NCBI RefSeq assembly: GCF_012849095.1
Contig: NZ_CP051680.1
Location: 6,940,001-7,004,000, forward strand
Source of the DNA: Cohnella herbarum
GTDB lineage: Bacteria > Bacillota > Bacilli > Paenibacillales > Paenibacillaceae
Length of the DNA: 64,000 nucleotides
Reading direction: 5' to 3'
Both the position numbers and the translations under genes were made by a program. Of this stretch, positions 1 through 15,460 are shown one piece after another. Below the pieces are notes generated by a model that ran no database searches, was not told where the DNA came from, and saw nothing but the letters and a program-made list of their open reading frames with translations. Numbering within the stretch: the first letter of the stretch is position 1; each line of letters opens with the position of its first letter.

Positions 1-954
1 CATTTCTACCGCTCGACTGCCGAGCGAGTTCTTGGCGCTATAAATCGTCGTAATCCCGAGGGAATTCACGTCAAGATCGTCGAATCCGGTCACGGAACAA
101 TCGCGCGGAACTTGAAGTCCCAATTGCTGAAGCGAATGGATCATGTCGCTGGCCATGTAATCGTTAATGCAAACGAAAGCCGTGGGAAGCTGATTTTTGG
201 CCTGGAGTATTTTGATTTGGTTCAACGCCGCTTCGCGTACCTTTTCCGGTCGCAAATCGAATAATTTGAGCAGGTCGGGGTGTTGGCGCGATTCGATGCC
301 GTTATCCACCAAAGCCGCGGAATAACCCTTCCATCTGTCATAGTAGCTTCTGATGATGGAAGTGTCGCCAACGAATTGCAGGGACGTGTGGCCGAGACCG
401 ATCAAATAATTCGTTAGCTGTCTTGTGCAATCGAAGTTGTTCATGAAAATCGAATCCGACGGAATCAACGGATCTTCATGGTCGACCAACACGAAAGGGA
501 GGCCGAGATTGCTAATTTCCAGCACGATTTGCGTGGGGATGAACCCGACGCATATGTAGCCGAGCAGGCCTTTCTGGTTAATGGCCGAAAATAAATGATC
601 GGACAGTTGCTCGGTCATGATGATCATATTTAATCCCGCTTTTTCGACGCTTTCCGTTATTCCTTCGAGAATTTTTCCCCAATACGGATTGTCCTTGGTC
701 TGATCCCTTAAGTTCGGAATGACCACCGCGATCACTTTCTTGGCGGGAGAGGCGCTCTGGATCGAGCGGTCCTTGGTTTTCGTCTTGTGAGATTTTGAGT
801 GTTGGGAAAAATAACCGAGCTTCGTGGCGGCTTCTATGATTTTGTCCCGGGTAACGGGGGTCACTCCGGATTTTCCCGCGAGCGCCCGCGAAACGGCGAA
901 CTTGGATAAGCCGACGGTATCGGCGATCTGTTGCAGCGTGACTTTGCTAGACAT
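1..954 (-). CDS. LacI-family transcriptional regulator (partial, C-terminus beyond window)
   Basis: This gene reads from an ATG at 954 leftwards and is still open at base 1, giving 318 visible codons. The start follows a purine-rich AGAGGAG-like site. Residues about 4-24 form the classic LacI helix-turn-helix (TLQQIADTVGLSKFAVSRAL). The rest fits the periplasmic-binding-protein-like sensor domain, including VTGFDDLDV near residue 286, a block typical of the family's C-terminal half. LacI-family proteins bind palindromic operators and release or bind DNA when a sugar ligand arrives. The gene is divergent from the sugar importer operon starting at 1373, so it is the likely local regulator. The intergenic region contains two copies each of two operator-like motifs. 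The last few percent of the protein is outside the window. Confidence 0.92.
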   Translation of the reverse strand, partial: MSSKVTLQQIADTVGLSKFAVSRALAGKSGVTPVTRDKIIEAATKLGYFSQHSKSHKTKTKDRSIQSASPAKKVIAVVIPNLRDQTKDNPYWGKILEGITESVEKAGLNMIIMTEQLSDHLFSAINQKGLLGYICVGFIPTQIVLEISNLGLPFVLVDHEDPLIPSDSIFMNNFDCTRQLTNYLIGLGHTSLQFVGDTSIIRSYYDRWKGYSAALVDNGIESRQHPDLLKLFDLRPEKVREAALNQIKILQAKNQLPTAFVCINDYMASDMIHSLQQLGLQVPRDCSVTGFDDLDVNSLGITTIYSAKNSLGSRAVEM

Positions 955-1038: not shown

Positions 1039-1239
1039 TGCGACATTTGTTATTTGTTGAACTCTATTGTTTTGTTAGATAACAAAATGGTGGTTTAAAT
1101 ATAGTTGCCCCTGTGTTTAATCCAGATTTACTCTTTGTTTCGCAGTGTTTATTTGGTTTTTGGTTTTACTTATCAAAATAACATATTGACATTTGTTTTG
1201 TGTATGTTATTCTTTTATTCAAGATGTTAGATAACAAAA
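1029..1239. promoter_or_regulatory. Duplicated operator-like motifs between divergent lacI and importer operon
   Basis: Motif A occurs at 1029-1055 and again at 1175-1201. It starts AAAATAACA, shares the block GACATTTGTT, and is roughly palindromic. Motif B, TGTTAGATAACAAAA, occurs identically at 1073-1087 and 1225-1239; its core TGTTA-GA-TAACA is an inverted repeat. The order A then B is kept in both copies. The left A covers the predicted lacI -35 and the right A covers the predicted importer -35, while the right B lies just downstream of the predicted -10. This is what paired operators for a LacI-type repressor would look like. That the divergent regulator binds them is inference. The stretch 955-1372 holds no gene. 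Confidence 0.5.
1186..1213 (+). promoter_or_regulatory. Predicted promoter of the 1373-13037 operon
   Basis: A perfect TTGACA -35 (1186-1191) is followed after 16 bases by TATTCT (1208-1213). It lies inside and just upstream of operator-like motifs. It would produce a leader of roughly 150 bases before the ATG at 1373. Confidence 0.6.
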
Positions 1240-1293: not shown

Positions 1294-1372
1294 GCATGGG
1301 GCGGATAATCAGAACTTAACGTTAGCGGGAAGGTAAAGCACTGCCATTCATACTTAATTGGGGGTACGGTCA

Positions 1373-2728
1373 ATGAAAGCTTTGAAAGCGTTTTTATCTC
1401 TAGGTTTGGTAATCGCTATAATTGTGGCAACGGCGGCATGTTCATCTGGAAATTCCTCCTCTGAGTCGAGCGCGGGCAGCGTCGGCGGAGGCGAGGTACA
1501 ACAGAGCGAGCAGAACAAAGAGAATGGTTCCGAGAAGGAAGTCACAATTAGGTACATGCGGTGGGCTTCCGGGGAAGAAGAGGTCAATTTCCGGGGCTGG
1601 TTGGACGAGTTCGAGAATGCCCATCCGAATATTAAAGTCGAGTCGGAATTTTTGCCTTACGAAACCTATAGTTCCAAGGTGAAAACCGATTTGATCTCGG
1701 GCAACGCGCCGGACGTCATCGCATTCTCTTCAAGCGAATGGTTCGCTTACATTTATTCGAACGTCTTCCTGGACCTCAATACGTTGCCGGGAGCGAAAGA
1801 AGCGTTCGGTCAGTTAACCGAGGATTCGGTTGCAGCGTTTAACGTGGAAGGCGCGCAATTGGGTGCTCCGATCGGGGTGGGCAGGAGAGTTCCTTTCATC
1901 AACAAGGATTTGTTCGACAAGGCAAACGTACCGCTTCCTTCCCAGACCGAGCCGATGACCGCGCTTCAATGGGTGGAGATGATGAAGAAGGTTCAAGCGG
2001 GACTTGAGGGCGATATGATGGCGGCCAATCTGTTTCCCGAGGAGTTATTGTACTCGTTGGCGCTGAGCGCCGGGTCGCCGGTGCTTTCGCAAGACGGCAA
2101 AAAGGTGCTAGTGAATACGCCGGACGGCGTAAAAGCGATTCAAGCGTTCAAGGACATCATGGCCAGCGGGGCGCAAGTGCCGATTCTCGATGTATGGAAA
2201 GGCGCTTACGGCAATCCGGACAGCGCGATATCGACCGGGAAAGTAGCGATCGGTTGGACGGGAACATGGAGCGTAAAAGCGCTGAAAGAGGCTAATATCA
2301 ACTATATGTCCATCCCGGCGCCGATCGTAGAGGGTGGGAAAGTGACTCAGGTCGGTTATCTGAACTCGCATGCCATCCCGTCTGCTTCGAAAAATCAAGA
2401 AGCCGCTTGGGAGCTTGTCAAGTGGATGATCTCCAAGGAAGGCCAGCTTTCGTTCGGCAAGTTCTCCGATCTTCCCGTTCACAAAGAAGCGCTGGACGAA
2501 ACGCAGAAAGCATTGGAAGCGGAAGATCCGAACGCCTTTGCCGGGTTTGCCGCGGCCAAGGCGAGCGTCGTTCCGACTCCGCCGTTTCCTTCGGACTTCG
2601 ATACGTTGAGGACGGGGCTGCAAAGCAAGCTCGTGTCGGGAAAAGTAACCGCGCAGCAATTTGCCGAGCAATTGGTACAAGAAGGCCAGCCAATGTTGGA
2701 TGTTTATCAAGCGAATATCGGTAAGTAA
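1373..2728 (+). CDS. ABC sugar importer, extracellular solute-binding lipoprotein
   Basis: This is a 451-residue family 1 solute-binding protein. It would capture an oligosaccharide outside the membrane and deliver it to the two permeases that follow. A signal peptide with a hydrophobic core ends in the lipobox TAAC, with the lipidated cysteine at residue 23, followed by a Ser/Gly/Glu-rich linker to about residue 50. The mature part shows the family pattern, for example a conserved region around TGTWSVKAL and a C-terminal AAWELVKWM helix. An in-frame TTG exists at 1358, but the ATG at 1373 is preferred because GGGGG lies just upstream and because it gives a normal signal peptide. It is the first gene of the LacI-controlled operon. 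The ligand cannot be read from sequence. Confidence 0.9.
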   Translation: MKALKAFLSLGLVIAIIVATAACSSGNSSSESSAGSVGGGEVQQSEQNKENGSEKEVTIRYMRWASGEEEVNFRGWLDEFENAHPNIKVESEFLPYETYSSKVKTDLISGNAPDVIAFSSSEWFAYIYSNVFLDLNTLPGAKEAFGQLTEDSVAAFNVEGAQLGAPIGVGRRVPFINKDLFDKANVPLPSQTEPMTALQWVEMMKKVQAGLEGDMMAANLFPEELLYSLALSAGSPVLSQDGKKVLVNTPDGVKAIQAFKDIMASGAQVPILDVWKGAYGNPDSAISTGKVAIGWTGTWSVKALKEANINYMSIPAPIVEGGKVTQVGYLNSHAIPSASKNQEAAWELVKWMISKEGQLSFGKFSDLPVHKEALDETQKALEAEDPNAFAGFAAAKASVVPTPPFPSDFDTLRTGLQSKLVSGKVTAQQFAEQLVQEGQPMLDVYQANIGK

Positions 2729-2805: not shown

Positions 2806-3735
2806 TTGGGATCAGGCACAAGAAAAATGGGGATTGAAAAAAAGGAAAAGATAACGGGTCTGCTGCTGGTCTCCCCGTGGATCGTGGGGTTCCTATTGTT
2901 CGGAATTTTTCCGATGGGAGTCTCCGGCTATCTGACGTTCGTCAAATGGGATTTTCTGAGGGAACCGCGATGGGTAGGACTGTCCAACTTCGAGGAAGTG
3001 TTTCGCAATCCGATTTTCTACACGGCGTTAAAGAATACGTTGATTATTACGTTCGGAAGCAGCTTGATCTATCTCGTGTTCGGAGTCATCATCGCCGCGA
3101 TGCTGGCTAAAGAATACCTAGGAGCGAACGTGTTCCGCGCCATTATCTTTCTTCCTTCCCTCGTGATCGGCACGGCATTGGCGATGATGATGCAACCGGT
3201 ATTCGGCAACGGGAAATACGGTTTATTGAATCAAGTTCTGAATTTACTAGGTTTACCTTACCAATCCTGGTTGACCGAGCCCGGCCAAGCCGTATGGGTC
3301 ATCGTCGCCATGAGCTTCTGGTTTCTGGGCAGCGGCGTCATCATTTATTTGGCCGGGATCAAAGGAATCGATCCGTCGTATTTCGAAGCGGCCATGATTG
3401 ACGGAGCTAACGGCGTTCAACAGTTCTACAAAGTCACTATACCGCTTCTTACACCGGTTTTGTTGTTCCAATCGATCATGGGAATTATCGGCGGCTTGCA
3501 AGTGTTCGATTTGGCGCTGACGTTGGCTTCCGAATTCAAGACAGGCGGAATGGGCAATGAAAACTCGTTGGCCACGCTCGTTTTCTACTTATATACGCTT
3601 GCTTTCCGCGACTACAACATGGGCTCTGCGGCCGTCGTCGGGTGGGTCATCTTTATCGTTAGCCTTCTGCTCAGTTTGGTCATCTTCAGACTATCCAAAA
3701 AGTTTCAGCTGTTCGGCGAGGAGGAAAGTAAATGA
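2806..3735 (+). CDS. ABC sugar importer permease (MalF/UgpA type)
   Basis: This is a 309-residue inner-membrane permease with about six hydrophobic segments and the cytoplasmic EAA loop EAAMIDGANG near residue 195, which docks the ATPase. The TTG at 2806 is chosen because AGGAGGG stands eight bases upstream; the alternative ATG at 2827 has no such site. It follows the solute-binding protein after a hairpin and overlaps the next permease by four bases. It belongs to the CUT1 transporters for di- and oligosaccharides. No ATPase gene is nearby, as is common when one shared MsmX-like ATPase serves many importers. Confidence 0.9.
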   Translation: MGSGTRKMGIEKKEKITGLLLVSPWIVGFLLFGIFPMGVSGYLTFVKWDFLREPRWVGLSNFEEVFRNPIFYTALKNTLIITFGSSLIYLVFGVIIAAMLAKEYLGANVFRAIIFLPSLVIGTALAMMMQPVFGNGKYGLLNQVLNLLGLPYQSWLTEPGQAVWVIVAMSFWFLGSGVIIYLAGIKGIDPSYFEAAMIDGANGVQQFYKVTIPLLTPVLLFQSIMGIIGGLQVFDLALTLASEFKTGGMGNENSLATLVFYLYTLAFRDYNMGSAAVVGWVIFIVSLLLSLVIFRLSKKFQLFGEEESK

Positions 3736-4565
3736 GACATAAATCGAGTCTTCTCGCGAGCAAATTATTCATTAATTCGTTCCTCGCTTTATTGTCGTTC
3801 GTCATTCTAGTCCCGTTCGTATACCTGGTTACTTCGTCTTTGAAGACCAATGCGCAATACTTCAAGATTCCGATCGAATGGATTCCGTCTCCTGCCCTGT
3901 GGAGCAACTATTACTATGTGTTCGTAGAGTTGAAGTTCTATATCTACATGTGGAACAGCACGTTCTTGGCGATTAGCTCGGTCATTCTAACCGTACTCAG
4001 CTCGTCGTTGATCGCATACGGTTTCGCGCGGTTCAAGTTTCCTTTCCGCAACGGCATGTTCATTCTCGTCATCGCGACGATGATGCTCCCGAGTCAAGTA
4101 ACGATGCTTCCGTTGTTCATTTACTTCAAATCAATCGGCTGGCTCGGCAGCTACAAACCGCTGCTCGTGCCGCAACTGTTCGGCTCCGCGTATTTGATCT
4201 TTCTGATCCGGCAGTTCTATATCACGCTTCCGCGGGAGATCGACGAGGCGGCCAAGATCGACGGATGCGGGTATTTGCGGATCTGGTGGAACGTGATTAT
4301 GCCGCAGGCGAAGCCGGTTCTCATCGTCTCGGCGCTGTTCGTCTTCCTCGGTTCTTGGAAAGACGTCTTCGGACCGCTTATTTACTTGAGCGATAGAAGC
4401 TCATACCCGCTTGCGGTAGGGCTGCTGTACTTTACTTCGCCGACCAGCAATGCTTACACGTTGATTCTAGTCGCGATCGTCATCGCCTTGATTCCGACGC
4501 TGATATTTTTTATTTTCGCTCAGAAGTATTTGAATAAGGGAGTCAATATCGCCAACTTAAAATAA
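3732..4565 (+). CDS. ABC sugar importer permease (MalG/UgpE type)
   Basis: This is the second permease, 277 residues, with about six membrane segments and the EAA loop EAAKIDGCGY near residue 172. Its start overlaps the stop of the previous gene as ATGA, and GAGGAGG lies just upstream, so the two subunits are translationally coupled. Together they form the heterodimeric channel. The C-terminus (QKYLNKGVNIANLK) is typical of MalG-type subunits, which usually end in a short basic tail. Confidence 0.9.
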   Translation: MRHKSSLLASKLFINSFLALLSFVILVPFVYLVTSSLKTNAQYFKIPIEWIPSPALWSNYYYVFVELKFYIYMWNSTFLAISSVILTVLSSSLIAYGFARFKFPFRNGMFILVIATMMLPSQVTMLPLFIYFKSIGWLGSYKPLLVPQLFGSAYLIFLIRQFYITLPREIDEAAKIDGCGYLRIWWNVIMPQAKPVLIVSALFVFLGSWKDVFGPLIYLSDRSSYPLAVGLLYFTSPTSNAYTLILVAIVIALIPTLIFFIFAQKYLNKGVNIANLK

Positions 4566-4583: not shown

Positions 4584-7241
4584 ATGCCCAAAAAAACGAT
4601 TGGTTTAGCCGTCGGCTTGAGTTTATTGGCGGGAATATGGCCGACCGGAGGAGAAGCGGCGGCAACGACCCCGTCGCCTTACGCTTTCGACGGGAAAATG
4701 CCGCAGGATACGCTGAACCGTTACTTGTCCCGATCCGCGCAGATCATGGATATGTTCTGGTTCGATACCGATGCGGGCAAGAAGCAGGAATGGCTGCGGT
4801 TCGTTCAGAATACCGGCACCAAGCTGATCGGGCGGGCCGCGATGATCTGGACGAATTTCCAGGACGACGAGACGATGTTCTATCACGCGGGCCGAATGGC
4901 TGCAGCCGTACACGCCCAGGATCCGGAAGTGATCCTGCAGGCGGCCATCTTCGAGACGACGGCGCAAGCGGTGAATCAAATCCCGATTCCGGCTTGGGTG
5001 TTCGAGGAATTCGGGCTACAGCCGACGACCCGTAATTTCAGTTACGCGTCGATGCTCTATCAGGACGGGAGATATTCCGATTTCTGGGGAGCGGGACAGT
5101 CCGTTCCCGATATTACGAGCCTCGAAACGCAGATGTTCTTCTTCTACCGGGCGAAGAGATTCATCGATCTCGGCTACGAGTCGATTCATTACGGTCAGGT
5201 TAAGCTGATGGGTGAAGCGGATCCGTTTTATTTGAACTGGAACCGCCTGCTTAATCGCGTTCGCGCGTACGGAGAAGTTCATGCCAGGAGGCATAACGTT
5301 CTATTGGACGCCCACGTGAACGAAGTATACGACAACGCCAATCCGTTATGGTACACGGCCAAGGGGCAGTTCAGATATGAAACGCCTGGCGATACGGGCA
5401 ATTATTATAACGGAGACGCATCGAGATTGAACCGCGCCGACGGCGCCCAATCGGCCGACGGGCACTATATCGTGTACAAGCTGGAGAACGCGACCGGCTT
5501 CGAGATCCTCTCCGCGAATTGGGCGGGAGCAGGCGATCAGCCCGACGGTTTCGATCTGTACGCGTCCCCGGACGGTCGAATCTGGACGCCGGTCGGCAAG
5601 ACGATTCAAGAAATCCAGCGTACGGAAAATACATGGCCGAACTACAAAACAACGAACGGCAGTCCTCTTCCCGCAGGGACGAATTACGTGAAAATCAGCT
5701 GGAAGACGATGCCGTACATTTGGACTGTTCAGTTGTTGGACGTGAAGATCAATGCCGCCGGCGCCGCGCTTCATGACCCTTTGGAGCAGTCCGCCCCGGC
5801 TGTTAAGAAACTGGCTTTCGACTTCGTAGGGTTTCCGGCCCGGTTGAAGGGGATTCCGAATTTCCCGCAGGAAACGAAGCTCGAAGTCAACTACTTGGAC
5901 GGTCTGTACCAGAAAACGATCGGAGGATTAAATCCGCAAGGGTGGGTTACCCCTCGTTCTCCGTATCTCATCGAGTTGGACAATTACGGAGGAAGCAACG
6001 GTTCCCCGGGAATCGATTCGCCGTATTGGCCGTGGGGATACGACGAAATCGCCTGGTTCGCCCACCAGAACGACGACTATCGGCACTCGTGGTTGAAATA
6101 CGCTTACGACTGGTTTAGAACGAACGATTCTTATGGTCATTTGCAACTGCCTGCATACCGGACGTTGGGCAATTCGCCGGTTAATGGAAGCAATAATTAC
6201 AATGCGATCACGGCGAGCGCGGTTTTCCCGAATACGCTCGGGGACGAAGAGGCGATCAAAGCGATATGGGGCGACGCGCCTCAGAGCGGAGCGGTCGAGG
6301 ACGATTTGCGCGATTTGACGAAAATTTATAGGTTCAGTTCGCAATTGACCAAAGACGGAAGCAATCCCGGATCCTATGGCGGAGACGGCACAAGGCTGAC
6401 GAGAACGTCGAATACGAGCGAATACGTCATTTACAAAGCTCCTTATGCGACTGATCGTACGAGACTGACCGGCTTCGCGGTCGAAACCTGGTTTTCATCC
6501 GCGGCGCCCGTTGCCGACTTTAAATTCTATCTCTCTTCGGACGACGTCAACTATACGCTCTATACGCCTAAGAAAAAAACGGTCAACGGAAATATGAAGA
6601 AGATCACCTACATGGGCAGCAGGCTGCCGGTCGGCACAAGATACGTGAAAGTCGAGTTCAACAACGCTTCTTCTTCCGCGTCGAATTCGCAGATTGGAAA
6701 AGTCTCGACGTTCTATGCCGATTCGAGCGTGAATGCCGCGGGAAAAATAGACGATTTCGAAAGCTATGGGGGATCCGATCTAGTCCTTAACGCTGCTTAC
6801 GAGGTTAATCCCAACACGGATCCGGTAACGATCTCGTTGGATTCGACGAACAAGAACGAAGGCGATTTCGGAATGAAATACGAGTACAACGTCGGAGTCG
6901 TCACTTACGGGGGCATTGCGCTCTCTCTCGGAAACGCCGATTGGTCAGACTACGATGCCCTTCGTTTCTGGTTCGAACCCGACGGCTCCAATCGCAATTT
7001 GACGATTCAAATCCAAACGGCCAGCGGTGACTATTGGGACAAAGTGTTGGACTTGTCCGATCCGACGGCAAGGGTGATCGAAATTCCGTTCAGTGCTTTC
7101 GCGCGTCCGTCTTGGCATAACGGAACCGGTCCGATGAACTTGTCGTCCGTCTCGCAACTCTCGCTTTATGCGGGAGTCGGCGCCGGAAGTCCGGGATCGG
7201 GCACGTTATATTTCGATTCTATCGAACTAACCAAGAATTAG
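4584..7241 (+). CDS. Exported 885-aa protein of unrecognised family, TIM-barrel-like with inserted and C-terminal binding modules
   Basis: I do not recognise a named family. A signal peptide covers about residues 1-27. Residues 30-250 and 410-575 align collinearly with the 570-aa protein at 8166 and show a beta-alpha pattern suggestive of a TIM barrel: strands such as LIGRAAMIW, VILQAAIFETT, YESIHYGQVKL, HNVLLDAHVNEV and PYLIELDNYGG, each ending in acidic or polar residues. Between the two halves (about 253-405) lies a beta-rich module that the paralogue lacks. A related module follows the barrel (about 580-715), and both contain a YxVYK block and an SPDGRIWTP or SSDDVNYTLYTP block, like discoidin-type binding modules. 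Residues 718-885 start KIDDFESYGG and resemble CBM11/CIA30-like carbohydrate-binding domains. Secretion, modules and operon suggest an extracellular polysaccharide-active enzyme. Catalytic residues are not established. Confidence 0.75.
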   Translation: MPKKTIGLAVGLSLLAGIWPTGGEAAATTPSPYAFDGKMPQDTLNRYLSRSAQIMDMFWFDTDAGKKQEWLRFVQNTGTKLIGRAAMIWTNFQDDETMFYHAGRMAAAVHAQDPEVILQAAIFETTAQAVNQIPIPAWVFEEFGLQPTTRNFSYASMLYQDGRYSDFWGAGQSVPDITSLETQMFFFYRAKRFIDLGYESIHYGQVKLMGEADPFYLNWNRLLNRVRAYGEVHARRHNVLLDAHVNEVYDNANPLWYTAKGQFRYETPGDTGNYYNGDASRLNRADGAQSADGHYIVYKLENATGFEILSANWAGAGDQPDGFDLYASPDGRIWTPVGKTIQEIQRTENTWPNYKTTNGSPLPAGTNYVKISWKTMPYIWTVQLLDVKINAAGAALHDPLEQSAPAVKKLAFDFVGFPARLKGIPNFPQETKLEVNYLDGLYQKTIGGLNPQGWVTPRSPYLIELDNYGGSNGSPGIDSPYWPWGYDEIAWFAHQNDDYRHSWLKYAYDWFRTNDSYGHLQLPAYRTLGNSPVNGSNNYNAITASAVFPNTLGDEEAIKAIWGDAPQSGAVEDDLRDLTKIYRFSSQLTKDGSNPGSYGGDGTRLTRTSNTSEYVIYKAPYATDRTRLTGFAVETWFSSAAPVADFKFYLSSDDVNYTLYTPKKKTVNGNMKKITYMGSRLPVGTRYVKVEFNNASSSASNSQIGKVSTFYADSSVNAAGKIDDFESYGGSDLVLNAAYEVNPNTDPVTISLDSTNKNEGDFGMKYEYNVGVVTYGGIALSLGNADWSDYDALRFWFEPDGSNRNLTIQIQTASGDYWDKVLDLSDPTARVIEIPFSAFARPSWHNGTGPMNLSSVSQLSLYAGVGAGSPGSGTLYFDSIELTKN

Positions 7242-7258
7242 GAGAGAGGAGCGCTCGG

Positions 7259-8173
7259 ATGAGTATCGATTGCTTTAGATTGGAAGACAAGTTCGTTTGG
7301 GATTTCTGGTATGCCCGGCGTGGAGACGAGTATCATGCTTTTTATTTGCAGTATCCAAGAGAGGGCGACCCGGAGTTCATTCATTACCGTCAGTCGGTAG
7401 GGCATGCGGTATCGAAGGATTTGCTGCATTGGGAAGAAAGACCGACTGCGCTTCGGCCGCTGCCTGGAACTTGGAACGACATGGGAATCGCGACGGGTAG
7501 CGTCGTTTTCAAGGATGGGGCTTGGTATATGTTGTTCACCGGGAACTCGAATCGGGACGGAGGCGGGATTGGTCTTGCCCGCAGCGACGACTTGACGAAT
7601 TGGACCAAAGTCGGCGAAGCTCCGGTGTTCTCGAGACCTGCTCTCTATATCGCGAAGTGGAAAGGAAAAGACGTCCAGGCGTCCCCGCTTGCCGACCCGT
7701 ATGTTTATCCCGAGCCGATAGACGGTTTTTACCATATGGTCATTAACGCGCAGGAGGCCGATGCGCCTCAAGGCAGTCGGGGCTGCCAGCTCATGCTGCG
7801 ATCCCGGAATCTGACGGATTGGGAGGCGCACAAGATTGTCGCTTATCCGCGACAGTTCGAGAGAATGGAAACGTCCCAAATCTGGTATCGCGACGGCTTA
7901 TGGTATATGTACTTCGGGGGAGTAACCGGGGACGGGAAAATCGAGAACTGGATTTACGCTTCCGAACTCTTCGACGGGCCTTACGAAGTCCGTCCATGGT
8001 CGCATATCTCGCTGCCGGGCGACTGCTATTTCTATATCGCGAAAGTGGTGGAGGACGCTAACGGGGACGACGTTTTCCTTGCCAATAAAGCGATCGAATC
8101 CCTTCTCGGAGGCTACAAAATCGTTTACGGGGATGACGGCTCGATCGCGCTTGAGGAGGTAAACCGTGCGTAA
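7259..8173 (+). CDS. Five-bladed beta-propeller glycoside hydrolase-like protein (GH43/GH32 superfamily)
   Basis: This is a 304-residue protein without a signal peptide, so probably cytoplasmic. Repeated blade motifs are visible: FVWDFWYA near residue 12, YHAFYLQYP, SVGHAVSKDLLHWEE, GAWYMLFTG, LADPYVYPEP, GFYHMVINAQEAD and GLWYMYFGG. This pattern is shared by clans GH-F and GH-J, where three acidic residues in the propeller centre do catalysis. The Asp of VWDFW, the Asp of LADPYV and the Glu of QEAD are plausible candidates. A GGAGAGAGG site precedes the ATG, and the gene overlaps the next by eight bases. The substrate is unknown. It could process the sugar imported by the same operon. Confidence 0.75.
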   Translation: MSIDCFRLEDKFVWDFWYARRGDEYHAFYLQYPREGDPEFIHYRQSVGHAVSKDLLHWEERPTALRPLPGTWNDMGIATGSVVFKDGAWYMLFTGNSNRDGGGIGLARSDDLTNWTKVGEAPVFSRPALYIAKWKGKDVQASPLADPYVYPEPIDGFYHMVINAQEADAPQGSRGCQLMLRSRNLTDWEAHKIVAYPRQFERMETSQIWYRDGLWYMYFGGVTGDGKIENWIYASELFDGPYEVRPWSHISLPGDCYFYIAKVVEDANGDDVFLANKAIESLLGGYKIVYGDDGSIALEEVNRA

Positions 8174-9878
8174 ACGGATCATGGTCATCGTGGTGGTCGG
8201 CTTGCTAGCCGGGATTGTGGCGATGGCCGCGGATAAGTTCAAAGGCAACGGCAAGCAAGAAGTTTCCGGATATGCATTCGACGGCCATATGTCGCAAGAA
8301 ACGCTGAATCGTTACTTGTCCCGTTCCGTGAAGATTCTGAACTTGGCCTTCTTTAACGAGGATCCGGACAAGAAACGGGAGTGGCTGCGCTTTATCGCGA
8401 ATACGGGAGCCAAGCATATCGGACGGGCCGCGATAATCTGGACGGATTTTGAAGCCGACGAGTCGATGTTCACCGGAGCCGGGCAGATGGCCCAAGCCGT
8501 CCATGATCAGGATCCGGAAATCATCCTGCAGGCGGCCATCTTCGAGACGACGGCTCAATCGGTAAATCATATCCAGATTCCGGCCTGGGTGTTCGAAGAG
8601 TTCGGGCTGCAGCCGGAAGCCCGGAACTTCAGTTACGAGGCGATGCTGTATCCCGACGGAAGATATCTGGATAACTGGGGAGCGGGAAAATCGGTTCCGG
8701 ACATTACTCAGCAGGAGACGCAACTCTTTTTCTTCTACCGGGCCAAGAGATTCGTCGATCTCGGCTATGAATCGATTCATATGGGACAAGTGAGGCTGAT
8801 GGGGGAAAAAGACACCGGCTATGTCGAATGGAATCGGCTGCTGAAGCGAATTCGAGCCTATGCCGCGGAGCACGGCCGGCGCCATAACGTTCTGCTCGAC
8901 GCACATTTGAACGAAGCGTACGACGACGAGGGCTCGACTTCTTCGAATACGTCGGACAGGAAGCTGACTTTCGATTTTGTCGGTTATCCGGCACGCAACA
9001 AACCTCTCCCCCGGTTTCCCGGGGAAACGAAATTGGAGCTCGATTTTCTTGATTCCTTTTATCGTAAAACGATCGGAGGCCTGAATCCCCAAGGCTGGGT
9101 TTCCTCCCATACGCCTTATTTGATCGAATTGGATAATTACGGAGGAAACAACGGCAATCCGGGCAAGAGCGAGCCCTTCTGGCCTTGGGGGTATGACGAG
9201 ATCGCCTGGTTCGCCCATCAGAGCGACGACTATCGCCGTTCTTGGCTGACTTATGCCCACGACTGGATTCAGACGAACGATCCGAACGGCCATCTTCAAA
9301 TGGCAGCCTACAATACGCTTGGCAACGCGCCCGTCGGCTCCAACGATTACTACAACGCCATCCAACCGAGCGAGGCGTACCCGTCGTCATTCGGCGACGA
9401 GGAAACGATCAAGACCATCTGGGGACAATCCAAGGAATCCGGTACGATCGAGGACGAGCTGAAGGATCTGACCCGAACGTACCGACTGAGTAGTCGCATG
9501 ATCTATGATCCACGTCCTTCCTCTGCGTTCGGCGGAGACGAGAAGAGGCTCACGAACGAATCCGGTAAGAGCGAGTACGTGATCTACAAAGCTCCTTTTG
9601 CCTCTGGAAAGGGCGTATTGTCAGGCTTTAAGGTCGAAGTTTGGCTGACGGTAAACGATCCTTCCGTCGATCTGCAATTTTACGTTTCGGCGGACGACGA
9701 CATTTATGAGATCTACACTCCGGACAGAAAAGCCGCTGAGAGCGCGGACAATAAAACGATCTATACCGGCGGCTATTTTCCGAAGGGGACCAAGTATTTA
9801 AAAATCCGATTTTCGGATAATCCCGGGGCTGCGCAAATCGGCAAGGTTTCGCTGAAATATGAAAGTATCGATGAATAG
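8166..9878 (+). CDS. Exported 570-aa paralogue of the 885-aa protein, unrecognised family
   Basis: The protein starts at GTG 8166, five bases after AGGAGGT and inside the end of the previous gene. A hydrophobic N-terminus (residues 3-22) is a signal peptide or membrane anchor. Residues about 32-430 match the barrel-like domain of the 885-aa protein block by block: TLNRYLSRS, FETTAQ, AWVFEEFGLQP, RAKRF-DLGYESIH, FYRKTIGGLNPQGWV and WPWGYDEIAWFAHQ. The inserted module is replaced by a short Ser/Thr linker (GSTSSNTSD) at about residue 255. One discoidin-like module remains at the C-terminus (about 435-565), and the CBM11-like domain is absent. Two copies in one operon suggest division of labour on one polymer. 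The function is not known. Confidence 0.75.
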   Translation: MRKRIMVIVVVGLLAGIVAMAADKFKGNGKQEVSGYAFDGHMSQETLNRYLSRSVKILNLAFFNEDPDKKREWLRFIANTGAKHIGRAAIIWTDFEADESMFTGAGQMAQAVHDQDPEIILQAAIFETTAQSVNHIQIPAWVFEEFGLQPEARNFSYEAMLYPDGRYLDNWGAGKSVPDITQQETQLFFFYRAKRFVDLGYESIHMGQVRLMGEKDTGYVEWNRLLKRIRAYAAEHGRRHNVLLDAHLNEAYDDEGSTSSNTSDRKLTFDFVGYPARNKPLPRFPGETKLELDFLDSFYRKTIGGLNPQGWVSSHTPYLIELDNYGGNNGNPGKSEPFWPWGYDEIAWFAHQSDDYRRSWLTYAHDWIQTNDPNGHLQMAAYNTLGNAPVGSNDYYNAIQPSEAYPSSFGDEETIKTIWGQSKESGTIEDELKDLTRTYRLSSRMIYDPRPSSAFGGDEKRLTNESGKSEYVIYKAPFASGKGVLSGFKVEVWLTVNDPSVDLQFYVSADDDIYEIYTPDRKAAESADNKTIYTGGYFPKGTKYLKIRFSDNPGAAQIGKVSLKYESIDE

Positions 9879-9905
9879 CAACTATGAAAAGGATGAATCA
9901 CTTCG

Positions 9906-12900
9906 ATGAGGAACACCATCGTATTTTATGATCCGGCTTTCCCTTACGACGGACAACGTCCGAGCAACGAGGCAATAAACGAGCTACAGAGCAAATACAA
10001 CGTAATCGACGCCGACGGTTTGGCGGATGCTCTCCTAGCGGCGGATGTATTGATTCAGCTTCACGGGCCTTATTTTCCTAAACCGGCATGGGATTCCCTC
10101 GTTCGATTTCTCAAACAGGGCAAAGGGCTCGTTCATATCGGGGGGGCTCCGTTTCGAATCCCCGTCTATCGTCACCAAGGAGAATGGGTGGCGGAGGGGG
10201 CTCAAACGGCTTACCATCGGCAGCTTCGCATTCACGAGGTTCTGAATACGGACGCGGATCGGATCGAATCGTTGGAGGCTAATCCGGATATACCGTTGGC
10301 TGCGGGTTGTGAGTTGTTGCTCGCGATCGAGCCGATCTGCTCGTTCACGCTCCATATAACCCGGACGGAAGACCGTCCCGGCGAGTTGGGGTCGAGCGGT
10401 CCGATGGATGCCCACATCTATCCTTTGTTGTACGGCGTTTCGGGAGAAGGGAGGAAACTGTCCGCTCCGATTACGTTGATCGAGAATACGAAAGGGGAAT
10501 TCGCGGGCGGGCGGTGGTTGTTCGTCAATCAGCGAATCGGACCGGCTTTCTGGGACGAAGGCGGAATGTCGGCGCTTCGCGAATGGGGAGCGTATTGCGC
10601 GGAAGGCGTTACCGAAATGTGGTTAAAGCCGAATTATGCCTGTTACGAGCCTGGAGAGCAGCCTGTCTTGAGCTTGCATATGCAAGAGTTGGGGCCTGTT
10701 AAGCTTGATCGTGCCGCGAAAGATTGGCATCTTTCTATTGCCCTGTACGAAGAGGGAAGCGACGAGGCGCTTTGGGCAGACAAAGTAAGCTTGCAATCTT
10801 CCCGGGAGCTTAGGATCGAGAGGCTACCCGTTCCCGTTTCGGTCGCTCCGGGTTTCTATCGCGTCGTGTGCGAAGCCAAGTCCGATCACGGCGAGAGGCG
10901 CGTGCTGAAGCAAGGGTTTTGGGGACGCGACAACCGACTGTTGAGCGAAGGTGAGAGATTGACGGTTAATCGCGATTACTTCGTCAAAGCGGGCAAACCG
11001 ATGCCGATCGTCGGGATGACGTACATGACTTCCGACGTTGCGCGCAAGTTTCTGTTCCTGCCGAACGCCGGACTCTGGGATGCGGATATGGCGCATATGA
11101 GACGGGCCGGCATCAATCTTATTCGTACCGGAATATGGACGGCTTGGCGCCAGGTTATGTTCGTAGACGGCCATCCTTACGAGGAAGTACTTCGATCAGT
11201 CGACGCGTTTATTATGACGGCCAAGAAACACGGTTTGGAGGTCGTATTCACGTTCTTCTCCTTCACTCCGGAAATGTGGGAGGGTGTAAACCCGTATCTC
11301 GATCCGCGCAGCGTTGCCGCCCAGAAGCGGTTGATCTCCGCGATCGTTTCCCGTCATACCGGTTCGACTAACGTGCACTGGGATCTGATCAACGAACCGA
11401 CGATGTTCGATCCGAAGCGCTTGTTTTCCGGGCCTCGTACGGTTGGGGACGCTTACGAACAAGCGGCTTTCGCGGAATGGCTGCAAGCCCGCCATGGTAC
11501 TATTCAGGAATTGCAAAAGCGCTGGGATATGACCCCCGACGAACTTCCCGGTTTCTCGGCAGTATCGTTGCCGCAGCCCGAAGAGATCAGCTTCGATATT
11601 ATGGATAACGGATCGCCGAAGAGGAACGGGATTTGGTTGGATTATAGCTTGTTCACGATGGAGATGCACAACCGTTGGGCCAAGGAGTTAATCGCCACGA
11701 TCCGGTCGCATAACGGATCGCAGATGGTGACTGTCGGCCAGGACGAAGGGCTGGGCTCCCAGAGACCGTCGCCGTTCTTCTATGCGGAAGCGGTCGACTA
11801 TACGACGGTGCATTCGTGGTGGCTGATGGATCATCTGCTGTGGGATAGCCTGTTCTCCAAAACGGCGAACAAGCCGAATCTGGTTCAAGAGACGGGCATC
11901 ATGTACGTCGAAACGCCGAACGGGCGCGCGAAAAGGTCGGAGCTTGAGATCCGCAACATTCTGGAGAGAAAATACGCTTATGCTTTCGCGGCGGGCGGAG
12001 CCGGGGCGGTACAGTGGATATGGAACACGAATTATTACATGAACAACGTCAACGAATCCAATATCGGCGCTTTGCGCGCGGACGGCACGGAGAAGCCCGA
12101 AGCGGACGTATCTTATCGTTACGGCCTCTTTATGGGGGAGATCGGACATTTGTTTAAGGACAGGGAGCTTGAAGACGTCGTCGTCGTATTCCCTTATTCG
12201 AACGATTTCTCGAACCGAAAGCTGGCCTTCGACGCGACGACGAAGCTGACGAGGGTTCTAGCCTACGAGATGAAAGTTCCGTTCCGCGCGATCGGGGAAT
12301 ATCATTTGGAGTCTCTGGAGCAAGCGAAACCCAAGCTAATCATCGTGCCTAGCCCGCACAATTTCAGCAGGCAAGCGCTGGATAAGATCGTTCTGCATGT
12401 GAAGGAGAACGGAGGGACCGTACTATTCACCGGTCCGATCGGGCTGGACGAATATTGGCGGCCGGAGTCCCGTTACGAGGAGGAGCTAGGGGAATACGAG
12501 CTCGGCAACGTCATGCGGGAAGAAGCTATAGAGGTCGAGAGTCTCGTATTGCCGGTTTCTTTCGGAGCTAACCGCATTTCCGAGGTAAATAAGGAATTGC
12601 CAGGAGCCGGCAGTGGGGCCGGAGCGGAGGCGCGCGGTCGTAAAACGGAACATGCCGCGGTGCGAAAGACGGACATTGGAAAAGGAACGTTCATCCGGTG
12701 TCCATTGCCGATCGAATTGAACGAAAGGTCGGAAGCGATCGCCGCGGTGTATCGGCATGCCTTATCGGTTGCTGGTTATCGATCTTCTATGGAGTGGATC
12801 CGAGGCGGAGACCTTCCTGGAGTGTTCGGCTCCAAAGTCGCTTTCGGCGAGGGGGCGGTGTACATGTTCGTGTCCGAATACGGTTATGACGCTTCGATCG

Positions 12901-13037
12901 CAATCAGAGATTCCAAGACGGGCAAAGGGTATTCGTTCGAATTGGAAAGCGAGCGGACGATGCTGTTCGCCGCGGACGCCGAAGGGCGACTCCTCTCGGT
13001 GCTTGGAGGAAACGAAGTTCAAGTACAGGTGTTTTAA
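9906..13037 (+). CDS. Clan GH-A type glycoside hydrolase, GH42-like, 1043 aa
   Basis: This is a large protein with no signal peptide. Residues 1-110 look like a glutamine-amidotransferase-type fold (VLIQLHGPYF, GKGLVHIGGAP). About 240-350 is a beta-sandwich-like region. About 355-700 is a TIM barrel: NLIRTGIWTAWRQ, EVVFTFFSF, then DLINEPT with the likely acid/base Glu497, and LVQETGIMYVET with the likely nucleophile Glu662. Residues 750-830 form another amidotransferase-like domain (PKLIIVPSPHNFS), as in the trimerisation domain of GH42 beta-galactosidases. The last part is a beta-sandwich. In GH-A enzymes these two glutamates perform retaining hydrolysis. It is the last gene of the operon and probably acts on imported oligosaccharide in the cytoplasm. 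The exact family and sugar are uncertain. Confidence 0.8.
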   Translation: MRNTIVFYDPAFPYDGQRPSNEAINELQSKYNVIDADGLADALLAADVLIQLHGPYFPKPAWDSLVRFLKQGKGLVHIGGAPFRIPVYRHQGEWVAEGAQTAYHRQLRIHEVLNTDADRIESLEANPDIPLAAGCELLLAIEPICSFTLHITRTEDRPGELGSSGPMDAHIYPLLYGVSGEGRKLSAPITLIENTKGEFAGGRWLFVNQRIGPAFWDEGGMSALREWGAYCAEGVTEMWLKPNYACYEPGEQPVLSLHMQELGPVKLDRAAKDWHLSIALYEEGSDEALWADKVSLQSSRELRIERLPVPVSVAPGFYRVVCEAKSDHGERRVLKQGFWGRDNRLLSEGERLTVNRDYFVKAGKPMPIVGMTYMTSDVARKFLFLPNAGLWDADMAHMRRAGINLIRTGIWTAWRQVMFVDGHPYEEVLRSVDAFIMTAKKHGLEVVFTFFSFTPEMWEGVNPYLDPRSVAAQKRLISAIVSRHTGSTNVHWDLINEPTMFDPKRLFSGPRTVGDAYEQAAFAEWLQARHGTIQELQKRWDMTPDELPGFSAVSLPQPEEISFDIMDNGSPKRNGIWLDYSLFTMEMHNRWAKELIATIRSHNGSQMVTVGQDEGLGSQRPSPFFYAEAVDYTTVHSWWLMDHLLWDSLFSKTANKPNLVQETGIMYVETPNGRAKRSELEIRNILERKYAYAFAAGGAGAVQWIWNTNYYMNNVNESNIGALRADGTEKPEADVSYRYGLFMGEIGHLFKDRELEDVVVVFPYSNDFSNRKLAFDATTKLTRVLAYEMKVPFRAIGEYHLESLEQAKPKLIIVPSPHNFSRQALDKIVLHVKENGGTVLFTGPIGLDEYWRPESRYEEELGEYELGNVMREEAIEVESLVLPVSFGANRISEVNKELPGAGSGAGAEARGRKTEHAAVRKTDIGKGTFIRCPLPIELNERSEAIAAVYRHALSVAGYRSSMEWIRGGDLPGVFGSKVAFGEGAVYMFVSEYGYDASIAIRDSKTGKGYSFELESERTMLFAADAEGRLLSVLGGNEVQVQVF

Positions 13038-14144: not shown

Positions 14145-15149
14145 TTATTTATTCCGATCAGGCAATTGAATCGGCAAATCCAGCCAAGCGACGCCGATAT
14201 CGCGGTGGAAGTGGTCGAATCCGGAGCCTTCCACGCCATCGTAATAGAGGGCTAGTTTATTCCCTTGACGGAATACGCTAGGCGCGCCGATGACGGATTT
14301 AGACCAGTTGCACATACTGCCGTCGAATACGAGAGCTTTGTTGTCGACGTCCCAATTCTGAATATCCTTAGTCCAATAAACCCACACGGCATCGGTATAT
14401 TCTTTGATTTCGTTTATCCCGACGTGATTGGTGAACAGAAACCACGTTTCGGTTTCTTCCTCGTAGAACACCGTGCTGTTCTCGATCTGCTCCTCGAGGG
14501 GGAATAAGGGCTCGGGATCAATGGTCCATTCTCCGTCCAGATCCTTGGTGCGCGCAATGCCTAAGGTGCGCTTGGTAATGTTGTCGGAGTCCAGTACGGA
14601 TGCGCTGAAAAACTGCAAATATTCGTCTCCGTCCTTCACGATCGCACCCGAGCTTGCGGTTGTGCTGTAATACGTGTTTTCTTTCATTCTGAAAGGCACG
14701 ATATCCTGTTTAATCCACGGCCCGTAAGGGGAGTCGGACTTTGCCTTCATCGTGACGTAAGGGAAATCCGGGATGTCGTACGGATGCTCGCGACGATAAT
14801 CCGAGCCGATATAGAACATATGCCAGACTCCGTCTTCGAGGTAAGTTACGCCATATACGGCGCAGCTGGAATCGTCTTCTCCTTCTTCGCCCAGGTTAAG
14901 AATGACTCCTTTTTTATCCCAATGAATGAGATCCTTGCTCGTGGCCAAATAATTTCTCCAGCCCGTCTTGTCATCGGAGGCATCGTAGTGCATGAAATAA
15001 GTGCCTTCGCTCTCGAAGACGAGGGGTTCCCTGATTCCGTATCCATCAAGCTCCTCGCCGCCTCTTCTGAGTACGATTCCTTGATCTGCCGCGGGGATCG
15101 TAAACTTCGCTTCCGGTCTTCCGTCTAAATATTTGTTGCCCAAATTCAT
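14145..15149 (-). CDS. Five-bladed beta-propeller glycosidase-like protein (GH43/GH130-like)
   Basis: This is a protein of about 334 residues without a signal peptide. Propeller blade motifs recur: GYGIREPLVFESEGTYFMHY, YLATSKDLIHWD, GVTYLEDGVWHMFYIGSD, SGAIVKDGDEYLQFFSAS, STVFYEEETETWFLF and GAPSVFRQGNKLALYYDG. These fit clan GH-F or GH130-like enzymes that hydrolyse or phosphorolyse short oligosaccharides. The start is uncertain: the frame opens at TTG 15212, but the ATG at 15149 (MNLGNKY) has GGAAGG close upstream and begins where the recognisable fold begins. It is divergent from the GntR gene at 15539, so both may share the FadR-type operator near 15500. The substrate is unknown. Confidence 0.75.
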   Translation of the reverse strand: MNLGNKYLDGRPEAKFTIPAADQGIVLRRGGEELDGYGIREPLVFESEGTYFMHYDASDDKTGWRNYLATSKDLIHWDKKGVILNLGEEGEDDSSCAVYGVTYLEDGVWHMFYIGSDYRREHPYDIPDFPYVTMKAKSDSPYGPWIKQDIVPFRMKENTYYSTTASSGAIVKDGDEYLQFFSASVLDSDNITKRTLGIARTKDLDGEWTIDPEPLFPLEEQIENSTVFYEEETETWFLFTNHVGINEIKEYTDAVWVYWTKDIQNWDVDNKALVFDGSMCNWSKSVIGAPSVFRQGNKLALYYDGVEGSGFDHFHRDIGVAWLDLPIQLPDRNK

Positions 15150-15460
15150 CACGCCTTCCATTTTGTAATAGTTCATAGCTATATAGGCCCTGCGATTAAT
15201 TGCTTTTAACAATAAGCTGAGGGAGGTAACATTCCTTGATCTAACGCGGTATCGTCAGCTTTTTTCCGGGTCTTCCATCCGAATTCTTATAGCCCGATCG
15301 ATCCCTCCTTTGCTCGTTTTGTAGAGAGTCACGGAAAGCTTGCGACGTAATGGGTCTCATGATAAAGGTTACTTTCGAAACTTTCAAGACCTTAAATTTA
15401 TCGGAATTTCGGAGGCGAAATGCATTTATATATGTTGGGAAAGCTCAAATTATTTTTTTG

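What the first reader, a model, noticed from the sequence alone, without database searches (positions are those of the whole stretch)
4584..9878. Pair of exported paralogues that look like an undescribed glycosidase family
The 885-aa and 570-aa proteins share a long domain with alternating strands and helices whose strand ends carry acidic or polar residues (AIFETT, DAHVNEV, LIELDNYGG). Both are exported, sit in a sugar-importer operon with two other hydrolase-like genes, and carry binding-like modules. I recognise no family for the shared domain. A new TIM-barrel glycoside hydrolase family is the best explanation; a polysaccharide-binding or lyase role is also possible.
Basis: partly seen in the sequence, partly recalled or inferred. 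Interest (0 to 1): 0.75.

Follow-up and report, generated by a model that had tools for sequence, protein, structure and literature searches.

The report
Unnamed barrel-fold sugar-cutting enzyme family
Two exported sister proteins in a bacterium's sugar-uptake gene cluster belong to a large, still unnamed protein family whose predicted shape is the barrel of classic sugar-cutting enzymes, so they are probably a new kind of carbohydrate-digesting enzyme awaiting a first activity test.

The parts
1..954 (-). LacI-family regulator gene, divergent from the operon; runs off the window start
   Evidence: ORF start at 954, no stop within the window; LacI and Peripla_BP Pfam matches on this piece and on the four corresponding genes in L037-L040
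1073..1084 (.). operator-like palindrome TGTTAGATAACA, copy 1
   Evidence: core GTTAGATAAC twice in each of the 5 orthologous intergenic regions; the exact 12-mer occurs only twice in the 8.5-Mb genome, both here
1225..1236 (.). operator-like palindrome TGTTAGATAACA, copy 2
1358..2728 (+). solute-binding protein of ABC sugar importer
   Evidence: SBP_bac_1 E 1.3e-35
2806..3735 (+). ABC importer permease
   Evidence: BPD_transp_1
3732..4565 (+). ABC importer permease
   Evidence: BPD_transp_1
4584..7241 (+). 885-aa paralogue (long copy), export inferred
4656..5330 (+). barrel, strands 1-5 (residues 25-249)
   Evidence: family HMM positions 14-235
5331..5801 (+). discoidin-like module inserted in the strand 5-6 loop (residues 250-406)
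   Evidence: breaks the HMM at 235|239; similar to the protein's own C-terminal module (E 1e-8) and to the insert of P0010 (E 4e-32)
5802..6272 (+). barrel, strands 6-8 (residues 407-563)
   Evidence: HMM 239-394
6459..6677 (+). C-terminal F5/8 type C (discoidin) module, matched part (residues 626-698)
   Evidence: Pfam
6735..7229 (+). CBM11 module (residues 718-882)
   Evidence: Pfam E 1.3e-14
7259..8173 (+). 304-aa GH32/GH43-like protein without hydrophobic N-terminus (cytoplasmic, inferred)
   Evidence: Pfam; PDB relatives include sucrose-6-phosphate hydrolase and beta-1,2-mannobiose phosphorylase; at E<=1e-20 found in exactly the 5 of 295 genomes that have the pair
8166..9878 (+). 570-aa paralogue (short copy), export inferred
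8241..9425 (+). uninterrupted barrel (residues 26-420)
   Evidence: family HMM 12-394; AlphaFold model of the whole protein
9477..9860 (+). C-terminal discoidin-like module of the short copy (about residues 438-565)
   Evidence: 44% identical to the 885-aa C-terminal module; no Pfam match of its own
8544..8546 (+). Glu127, after strand 3, invariant
   Evidence: 121 of 121
8898..8906 (+). Asp245-Ala-His247, strand 5
   Evidence: Asp 120/121, His 121/121
9126..9134 (+). Glu321-Leu-Asp323, end of strand 7; Glu and Asp invariant
   Evidence: 121 of 121 each
9906..13037 (+). 1043-aa GH42/GH5-like hydrolase
   Evidence: Pfam; 58% identical relative in L072 lies between GH125 and GH38 genes

Best explanation
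The two proteins are secreted glycoside hydrolases of a so far unnamed TIM-barrel family. They bind an extracellular glycan through discoidin/CBM11 modules and cut it in a pocket at the C-terminal face of the barrel; the likeliest catalytic acids are Glu127, Glu321/Asp323 and possibly Asp245 (570-aa numbering), with His205, Gln208, His247 and Trp92 lining the site. The oligosaccharides are imported by the adjacent ABC system and finished in the cytosol by the 304-aa and 1043-aa enzymes; an imported sugar relieves a LacI repressor at two local operators. Shown: ORFs, homology, conservation, operon conservation, confident barrel model. Inferred: catalysis, catalytic residues, export, order of events, action of the regulator. 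A mannose-containing glycan is my best substrate guess (about 0.35).
Against: No activity, ligand or solved relative. Conserved polar residues are not enriched at strand C-ends over N-ends by simple count (7 versus 6 of 24). No acid at the end of strand 4. The mannose reading is weak: GH38 genes are common (5-15 per genome); no GH38 or GH125 is found by tblastn in the window or in the four orthologous loci L037-L040, and only 1 of the 16 other Paenibacillaceae barrel loci (L041-L056) has a GH38 and none a GH125 in the 16-18 kb fetched. The Foldseek list also holds a methionine synthase barrel.
Confidence: 0.68

Rival explanations
1. The barrel is a remote, unrecognised branch of an existing CAZy family (for example one without a Pfam model), so it is an ordinary member with an old mechanism.
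For: Foldseek and VIA give many glycosidases at similar scores, including GH168, GH114 and GH13 entries. CAZy/dbCAN models were not available here.
Against: None of 99 members matches a Pfam glycosidase family at E 0.1; neither profile finds a credible PDB chain (one chance match at E 0.43; none); in the rows listed the names given by sources are hypothetical or uncharacterized protein, except where they name a fused or C-terminal domain.
Confidence: 0.15
2. The barrel has become a carbohydrate-binding or sensing protein without catalysis, presenting sugars to the importer.
For: Many attached binding modules; no acid at the end of strand 4; no activity known.
Against: Glu110, Glu297, Asp299, His230 and other polar residues are invariant in 121 of 121 members, and five neighbouring copies beside degradative enzymes in a planctomycete fit an enzyme better.
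Confidence: 0.1
3. It is a carbohydrate-active enzyme of another reaction type (polysaccharide lyase, transglycosylase, phosphorylase, esterase or deacetylase) on the same barrel.
For: The Foldseek list includes branching enzymes, amylosucrase, trehalose synthase and a cobalamin-dependent methionine synthase barrel; VIA lists the PgaB C-terminal domain.
Against: Nearest folds are dominated by hydrolases, and acid residues at strand ends with conserved Trp are typical of glycosidases (established knowledge, not tested here).
Confidence: 0.07

Closest known systems
TIM-barrel glycoside hydrolases at large (GH13, GH27, GH31, GH39, GH66, GH114, GH156, GH168; some family numbers recalled, not in the entry titles)
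   Different: 4-16% sequence identity in the rows listed, no sequence-profile match, no single family stands out, strand-end residues differ from clan GH-A and GH13 (their residues recalled).
Clan GH-A (GH5, GH39, GH42 and others)
   Same: Glu at the end of strand 7.
   Different: Clan GH-A has Asn-Glu at strand 4 (recalled knowledge); here strand 4 ends in His-Phe-Gly-Gln.
Cytoplasmic N-glycan-core loci (GH38 with GH5_18, or GH38 with GH125, in C. acnes; PMC6160142, passages)
   Same: Relatives of the window's 1043-aa enzyme lie between GH125 and GH38.
   Different: The window operon itself has neither GH38 nor GH125; its presumed extracellular enzymes are the new family.
X25-type barrel proteins (P0121-P0240)
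   Same: Same barrel: all 240 proteins listed match the family core HMM; 36-39% identical to the 570-aa protein in L041-L055; 1,112 homologues of one of them.
   Different: No discoidin/CBM11 modules; 39 of the 120 rows listed carry a precomputed pullulanase X25 domain (PF22058) at the C-terminus.

Membership tests
TIM-barrel glycosidase superfold | eight-stranded (beta/alpha) barrel | tested here: met
   core model pLDDT 95.9, eight strands in order (the limits of strand 8 are my reading); PDB matches
TIM-barrel glycosidase superfold | acidic pair in a pocket at the C-terminal face of the barrel | tested here: inconclusive
   invariant Glu110, Glu297, Asp299 near strand C-ends, but no coordinates to measure distances and no C-end enrichment overall
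TIM-barrel glycosidase superfold | hydrolysis of a glycosidic bond | not testable with these tools
   needs a bench assay
Clan GH-A | acid/base Glu (after Asn) at the end of strand 4 | tested here: not met
   His188 and Gln191 at strand 4, each 120/121; strand numbering from the model
Clan GH-A | Glu at the end of strand 7 | tested here: met
   Glu297, 121/121; its role as nucleophile is inferred
GH13 | Pfam alpha-amylase profile match | tested here: not met
   no such match among 99 members at E 0.1
GH13 | Asp at strand 4, Glu at strand 5, Asp at strand 7 (recalled) | tested here: not met
   strand 4 His, strand 5 Asp-Ala-His, strand 7 Glu-x-Asp
GH168 | sequence-family membership | tested here: inconclusive
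   Foldseek TM (query) 0.40-0.43 to chains titled endo-1,3-fucanase/Fun168; no sequence match to PDB chains; GH168 profile itself not tested
Any named Pfam or NCBIfam family for the barrel | score above curated cut-off | tested here: not met
   (window proteins); Pfam, 99 members: four single-member matches at E 0.0095-0.073 to unrelated families; NCBIfam was run on the two window proteins only
CAZy family (any) | dbCAN/CAZy assignment | not testable with these tools
   library not held

The most novel reading that the evidence does not exclude
A large glycosidase family with its own catalytic arrangement (acids after strand 3 and at strand 7, possibly with the strand-5 Asp-His, no acid at strand 4), in which one branch places a discoidin-type binding module in the loop beside the active site and then duplicates into an insert-bearing and an insert-free enzyme working as a pair.
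Probability: 0.3. Interest if true: 0.72.

Novelty: new variant of a known kind. Interest (0 to 1): 0.55.

Why it matters
Over a thousand database proteins (alone returned 1,112), with named sources in Paenibacillaceae, Lachnospiraceae and relatives, Planctomycetota, Armatimonadota, Hydrogenedentes, Sumerlaeota and Bacteroidota, share a barrel that the annotation libraries searched here do not name. A first activity would let these loci be annotated and might reveal a route for degrading a glycan not now attributed to these organisms. The window operon is a compact test system: regulator, importer, two presumed secreted enzymes and two presumed cytoplasmic partners.

Tried and rejected
Mannan/N-glycan substrate from alpha-mannosidase genes beside the barrel genes themselves: GH38 is common (5-15 copies per genome) and by tblastn only 1 of 20 fetched Paenibacillaceae barrel loci (L046 among L037-L056) holds one, and none a GH125; the planctomycete cluster has a GH38 and its genome no GH125. 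GH130: 19 of 20 genomes have it, but the only one found in a barrel locus is in the planctomycete cluster. So the hint rests on the relatives of the 1043-aa enzyme and is kept as weak.

Position test for an active-site face: conserved polar residues were not enriched at strand C-ends over N-ends (7 versus 6 of 24). The N-end ones are all charged (Arg39, Lys66, Asp99, Glu185, Arg222, Asp246), which I read as a structural salt-bridge layer; that is an inference.

Distribution: own-phylum survey 1 of 398 genomes, our own, at E<=1e-30; Planctomycetota survey 3 of 199, one of them the seed genome. In one search, 61 of 295 family genomes matched, 42 of them only through the C-terminal module; 19 carry the barrel. 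These surveys scored at most 3-9 candidates per genome, so copies may be missed. The family looks patchy. The single-protein genome-contig scan found only 2 loci. Not every one of the 690 and 1,112 hits need carry the barrel; the 240 listed ones do.

The library lacks most subscription journals. Passages of PMC6160142 were read; all other papers were seen only as listings or opening lines of abstracts.

Full report
What is there. Reading frames 4584-7241 (885 aa) and 8166-9878 (570 aa) are intact and follow a solute-binding protein and two permeases. Between them lies a 304-aa ORF matching Glyco_hydro_32N (E 2.6e-19) and Glyco_hydro_43 (8.6e-10); after them a 1043-aa ORF with GH42 (3e-9) and GH5 (1e-6) matches. 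A LacI-type gene (1-954, minus strand, cut by the window start) is divergent. The two proteins begin with hydrophobic stretches (KD 1.89 and 3.12), the 304-aa protein does not, and the 1043-aa protein has its most hydrophobic early stretch only at residue 38; export and cytoplasmic location are inferred from this.

Family status. The 885-aa protein matches CBM_11 and F5/8 type C only; the 570-aa protein matches nothing in Pfam, and neither matches NCBIfam. Searches of PDB sequences give nothing or chance matches. Protein searches returned 690 homologues for the 570-aa protein and 1,112 for a 523-aa relative from Paenibacillus nasutitermitis; only the best 120 of each were listed, the sets may overlap, and all 240 listed proteins match the barrel HMM. 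Where listed rows bear a source's name it is hypothetical or uncharacterized protein, apart from names that refer to a fused or C-terminal domain (one sialidase fusion; several pullulanase X25). Of 99 aligned members none has a plausible Pfam family; four single-member matches at E 0.0095-0.073 are to unrelated families.

Conservation. In the 121-row alignment (rows chosen by me from the 240 listed proteins; long multidomain ones and most of the second set left out) these are 121/121: Trp75, Glu110, Arg136, Glu167, Glu185, Asp199, Arg222, His230, Asp246, Glu297, Asp299, Trp317, Trp324, Glu392; His188, Gln191 and Asp228 are 120/121. In the 570-aa protein these include Trp92, Glu127, His205, Gln208, Asp245, His247, Glu321, Asp323. 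The strand-4 end has His and Gln, unlike clan GH-A. A simple count shows no excess of conserved polar residues at strand C-ends (7) over N-ends (6), and no coordinates were available, so the pocket is inferred.

Architecture and history. The family profile breaks in the 885-aa protein at positions 235|239, between strands 5 and 6, where a 157-aa module is inserted. This module is related to the protein's own C-terminal discoidin module (31% identity, E 1e-8) and to the insert in P0010 (36%, E 4e-32); Pfam sees F5/8C in P0010's insert (E 1.3e-4, below its cut-off). In a tree of 54 rows the long and short copies form one clade (100/97), and this with P0010/P0014, which carry the insert, another (100/100). 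Duplication within this lineage and loss of the insert from the short copy is the simplest reading; at the same site several short copies have Asn/Ser-rich linkers of varying length. The G240 long copy falls among the short ones (97/98) and is 98% and 95% identical to its own short copy in residues 41-80 and 81-120, against 60% and 78% to the window's long copy, which looks like gene conversion.

Operon. SBP, two permeases, long copy, 304-aa gene, short copy and 1043-aa gene keep order and strand in the window and in L037-L040, with a divergent LacI gene in all five. Among 295 family genomes the pair is in 5 (G000, G129, G164, G240, G260) and the 304-aa gene, at E<=1e-20, in exactly those 5. 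In G240 a sulfatase gene (L038 14298-15620) follows directly. The core GTTAGATAAC occurs twice in each LacI-SBP intergenic region; the exact 12-mer TGTTAGATAACA occurs only twice in the 8.5-Mb genome, both here (with up to one mismatch the pattern is no commoner than its control, 24 versus 27). This fits a repressor dedicated to this operon; binding is inferred.

Substrate clues. Relatives of the 1043-aa enzyme occur in 177 of 295 family genomes (at most 2 candidates per genome were scored and the place list is cut). In the 19 Paenibacillaceae genomes among the 20 given to I counted 21 listed non-orthologous places. Ten have a GH125 alpha-mannosidase gene within 1 kb on the same strand (G077, G121, G129, G137, G173, G175, G182, G188, G208, G260), and eight of these (not G137, G175) also a GH38 gene within 1 kb on the other side (coordinates; the GH38 list is cut, so eight is a lower bound). 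Pfam confirms both neighbours in the four loci scanned (L072, L073, L074, L076) and tblastn in a fifth (L075). The window enzyme is 58% identical to the L072 one. The second copy in the window's own genome (6264644-6267742) has no GH38 listed near it; a GH125 match split over two frames lies about 7 kb away. In C. acnes a GH38/GH5_18 locus is proposed to trim N-glycan cores, its GH5_18 beta-mannosidase confirmed (PMC6160142, passages). In a planctomycete (G423) five copies of the barrel lie within about 10 kb around a GH130 gene, with GH38, sulfatase, SGNH and symporter genes next to them and a GlcNAc 2-epimerase-family gene further on. Against this, no GH38 or GH125 lies in the window or the four orthologous loci, and one GH38 in the 16 other Paenibacillaceae barrel loci. 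Together this suggests a mannose-containing, perhaps sulfated, glycan at low confidence.

Mechanism. Most likely the two secreted enzymes cut an extracellular glycan, the importer takes up the pieces, and the two cytoplasmic enzymes finish them. Glu127 with Glu321 or Asp323, on opposite sides of the barrel by strand number, are my favoured catalytic acids (about 0.4), Asp245-His247 the alternative. Retaining or inverting cannot be told.

Novelty. A new family of a known kind by the libraries at hand; CAZy itself was not searchable. Literature searches showed no description of it, within an open-licence library.

Noticed in passing
P0099 and P0120 (proteins): Two homologues show a permuted order: family positions 51/52-395 first, then 15-50 or 18-49 at the C-terminus. 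Either a natural circular permutation of the barrel or an artefact of gene arrays on short contigs.
   Followed up: partly
L038 5327-7975 versus 9333-11063: Residues 41-120 of the long copy are 95-98% identical to the short copy next door: apparent gene conversion between the paralogues.
   Followed up: partly
L038 14298-15620: A 440-aa sulfatase gene directly follows the operon in G240 on the same strand; a sulfatase also flanks the planctomycete cluster.
   Followed up: no
P0015, P0016, P0019, P0092, P0103: About 460-580 residues precede the barrel without any Pfam match, so probably another unnamed domain.
   Followed up: no
L064 10092-19986: Five diverged copies of the barrel side by side in one planctomycete, interrupted by a GH130 gene.
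   Followed up: partly
window 14145-15212, minus strand: A 355-aa gene after the operon, on the other strand, with GH32N above cut-off and GH130 below.
   Followed up: no
L072-L076: Recurrent GH125 - 1043-aa-type enzyme - GH38 order in Paenibacillaceae; the middle enzyme has only weak GH42/GH5 matches and may be a beta-mannosidase-like partner.
   Followed up: partly
G000:C1:6274654-6275837: The GH125 match of the window's own genome is split over two reading frames, so the gene may be broken or misread.
   Followed up: no
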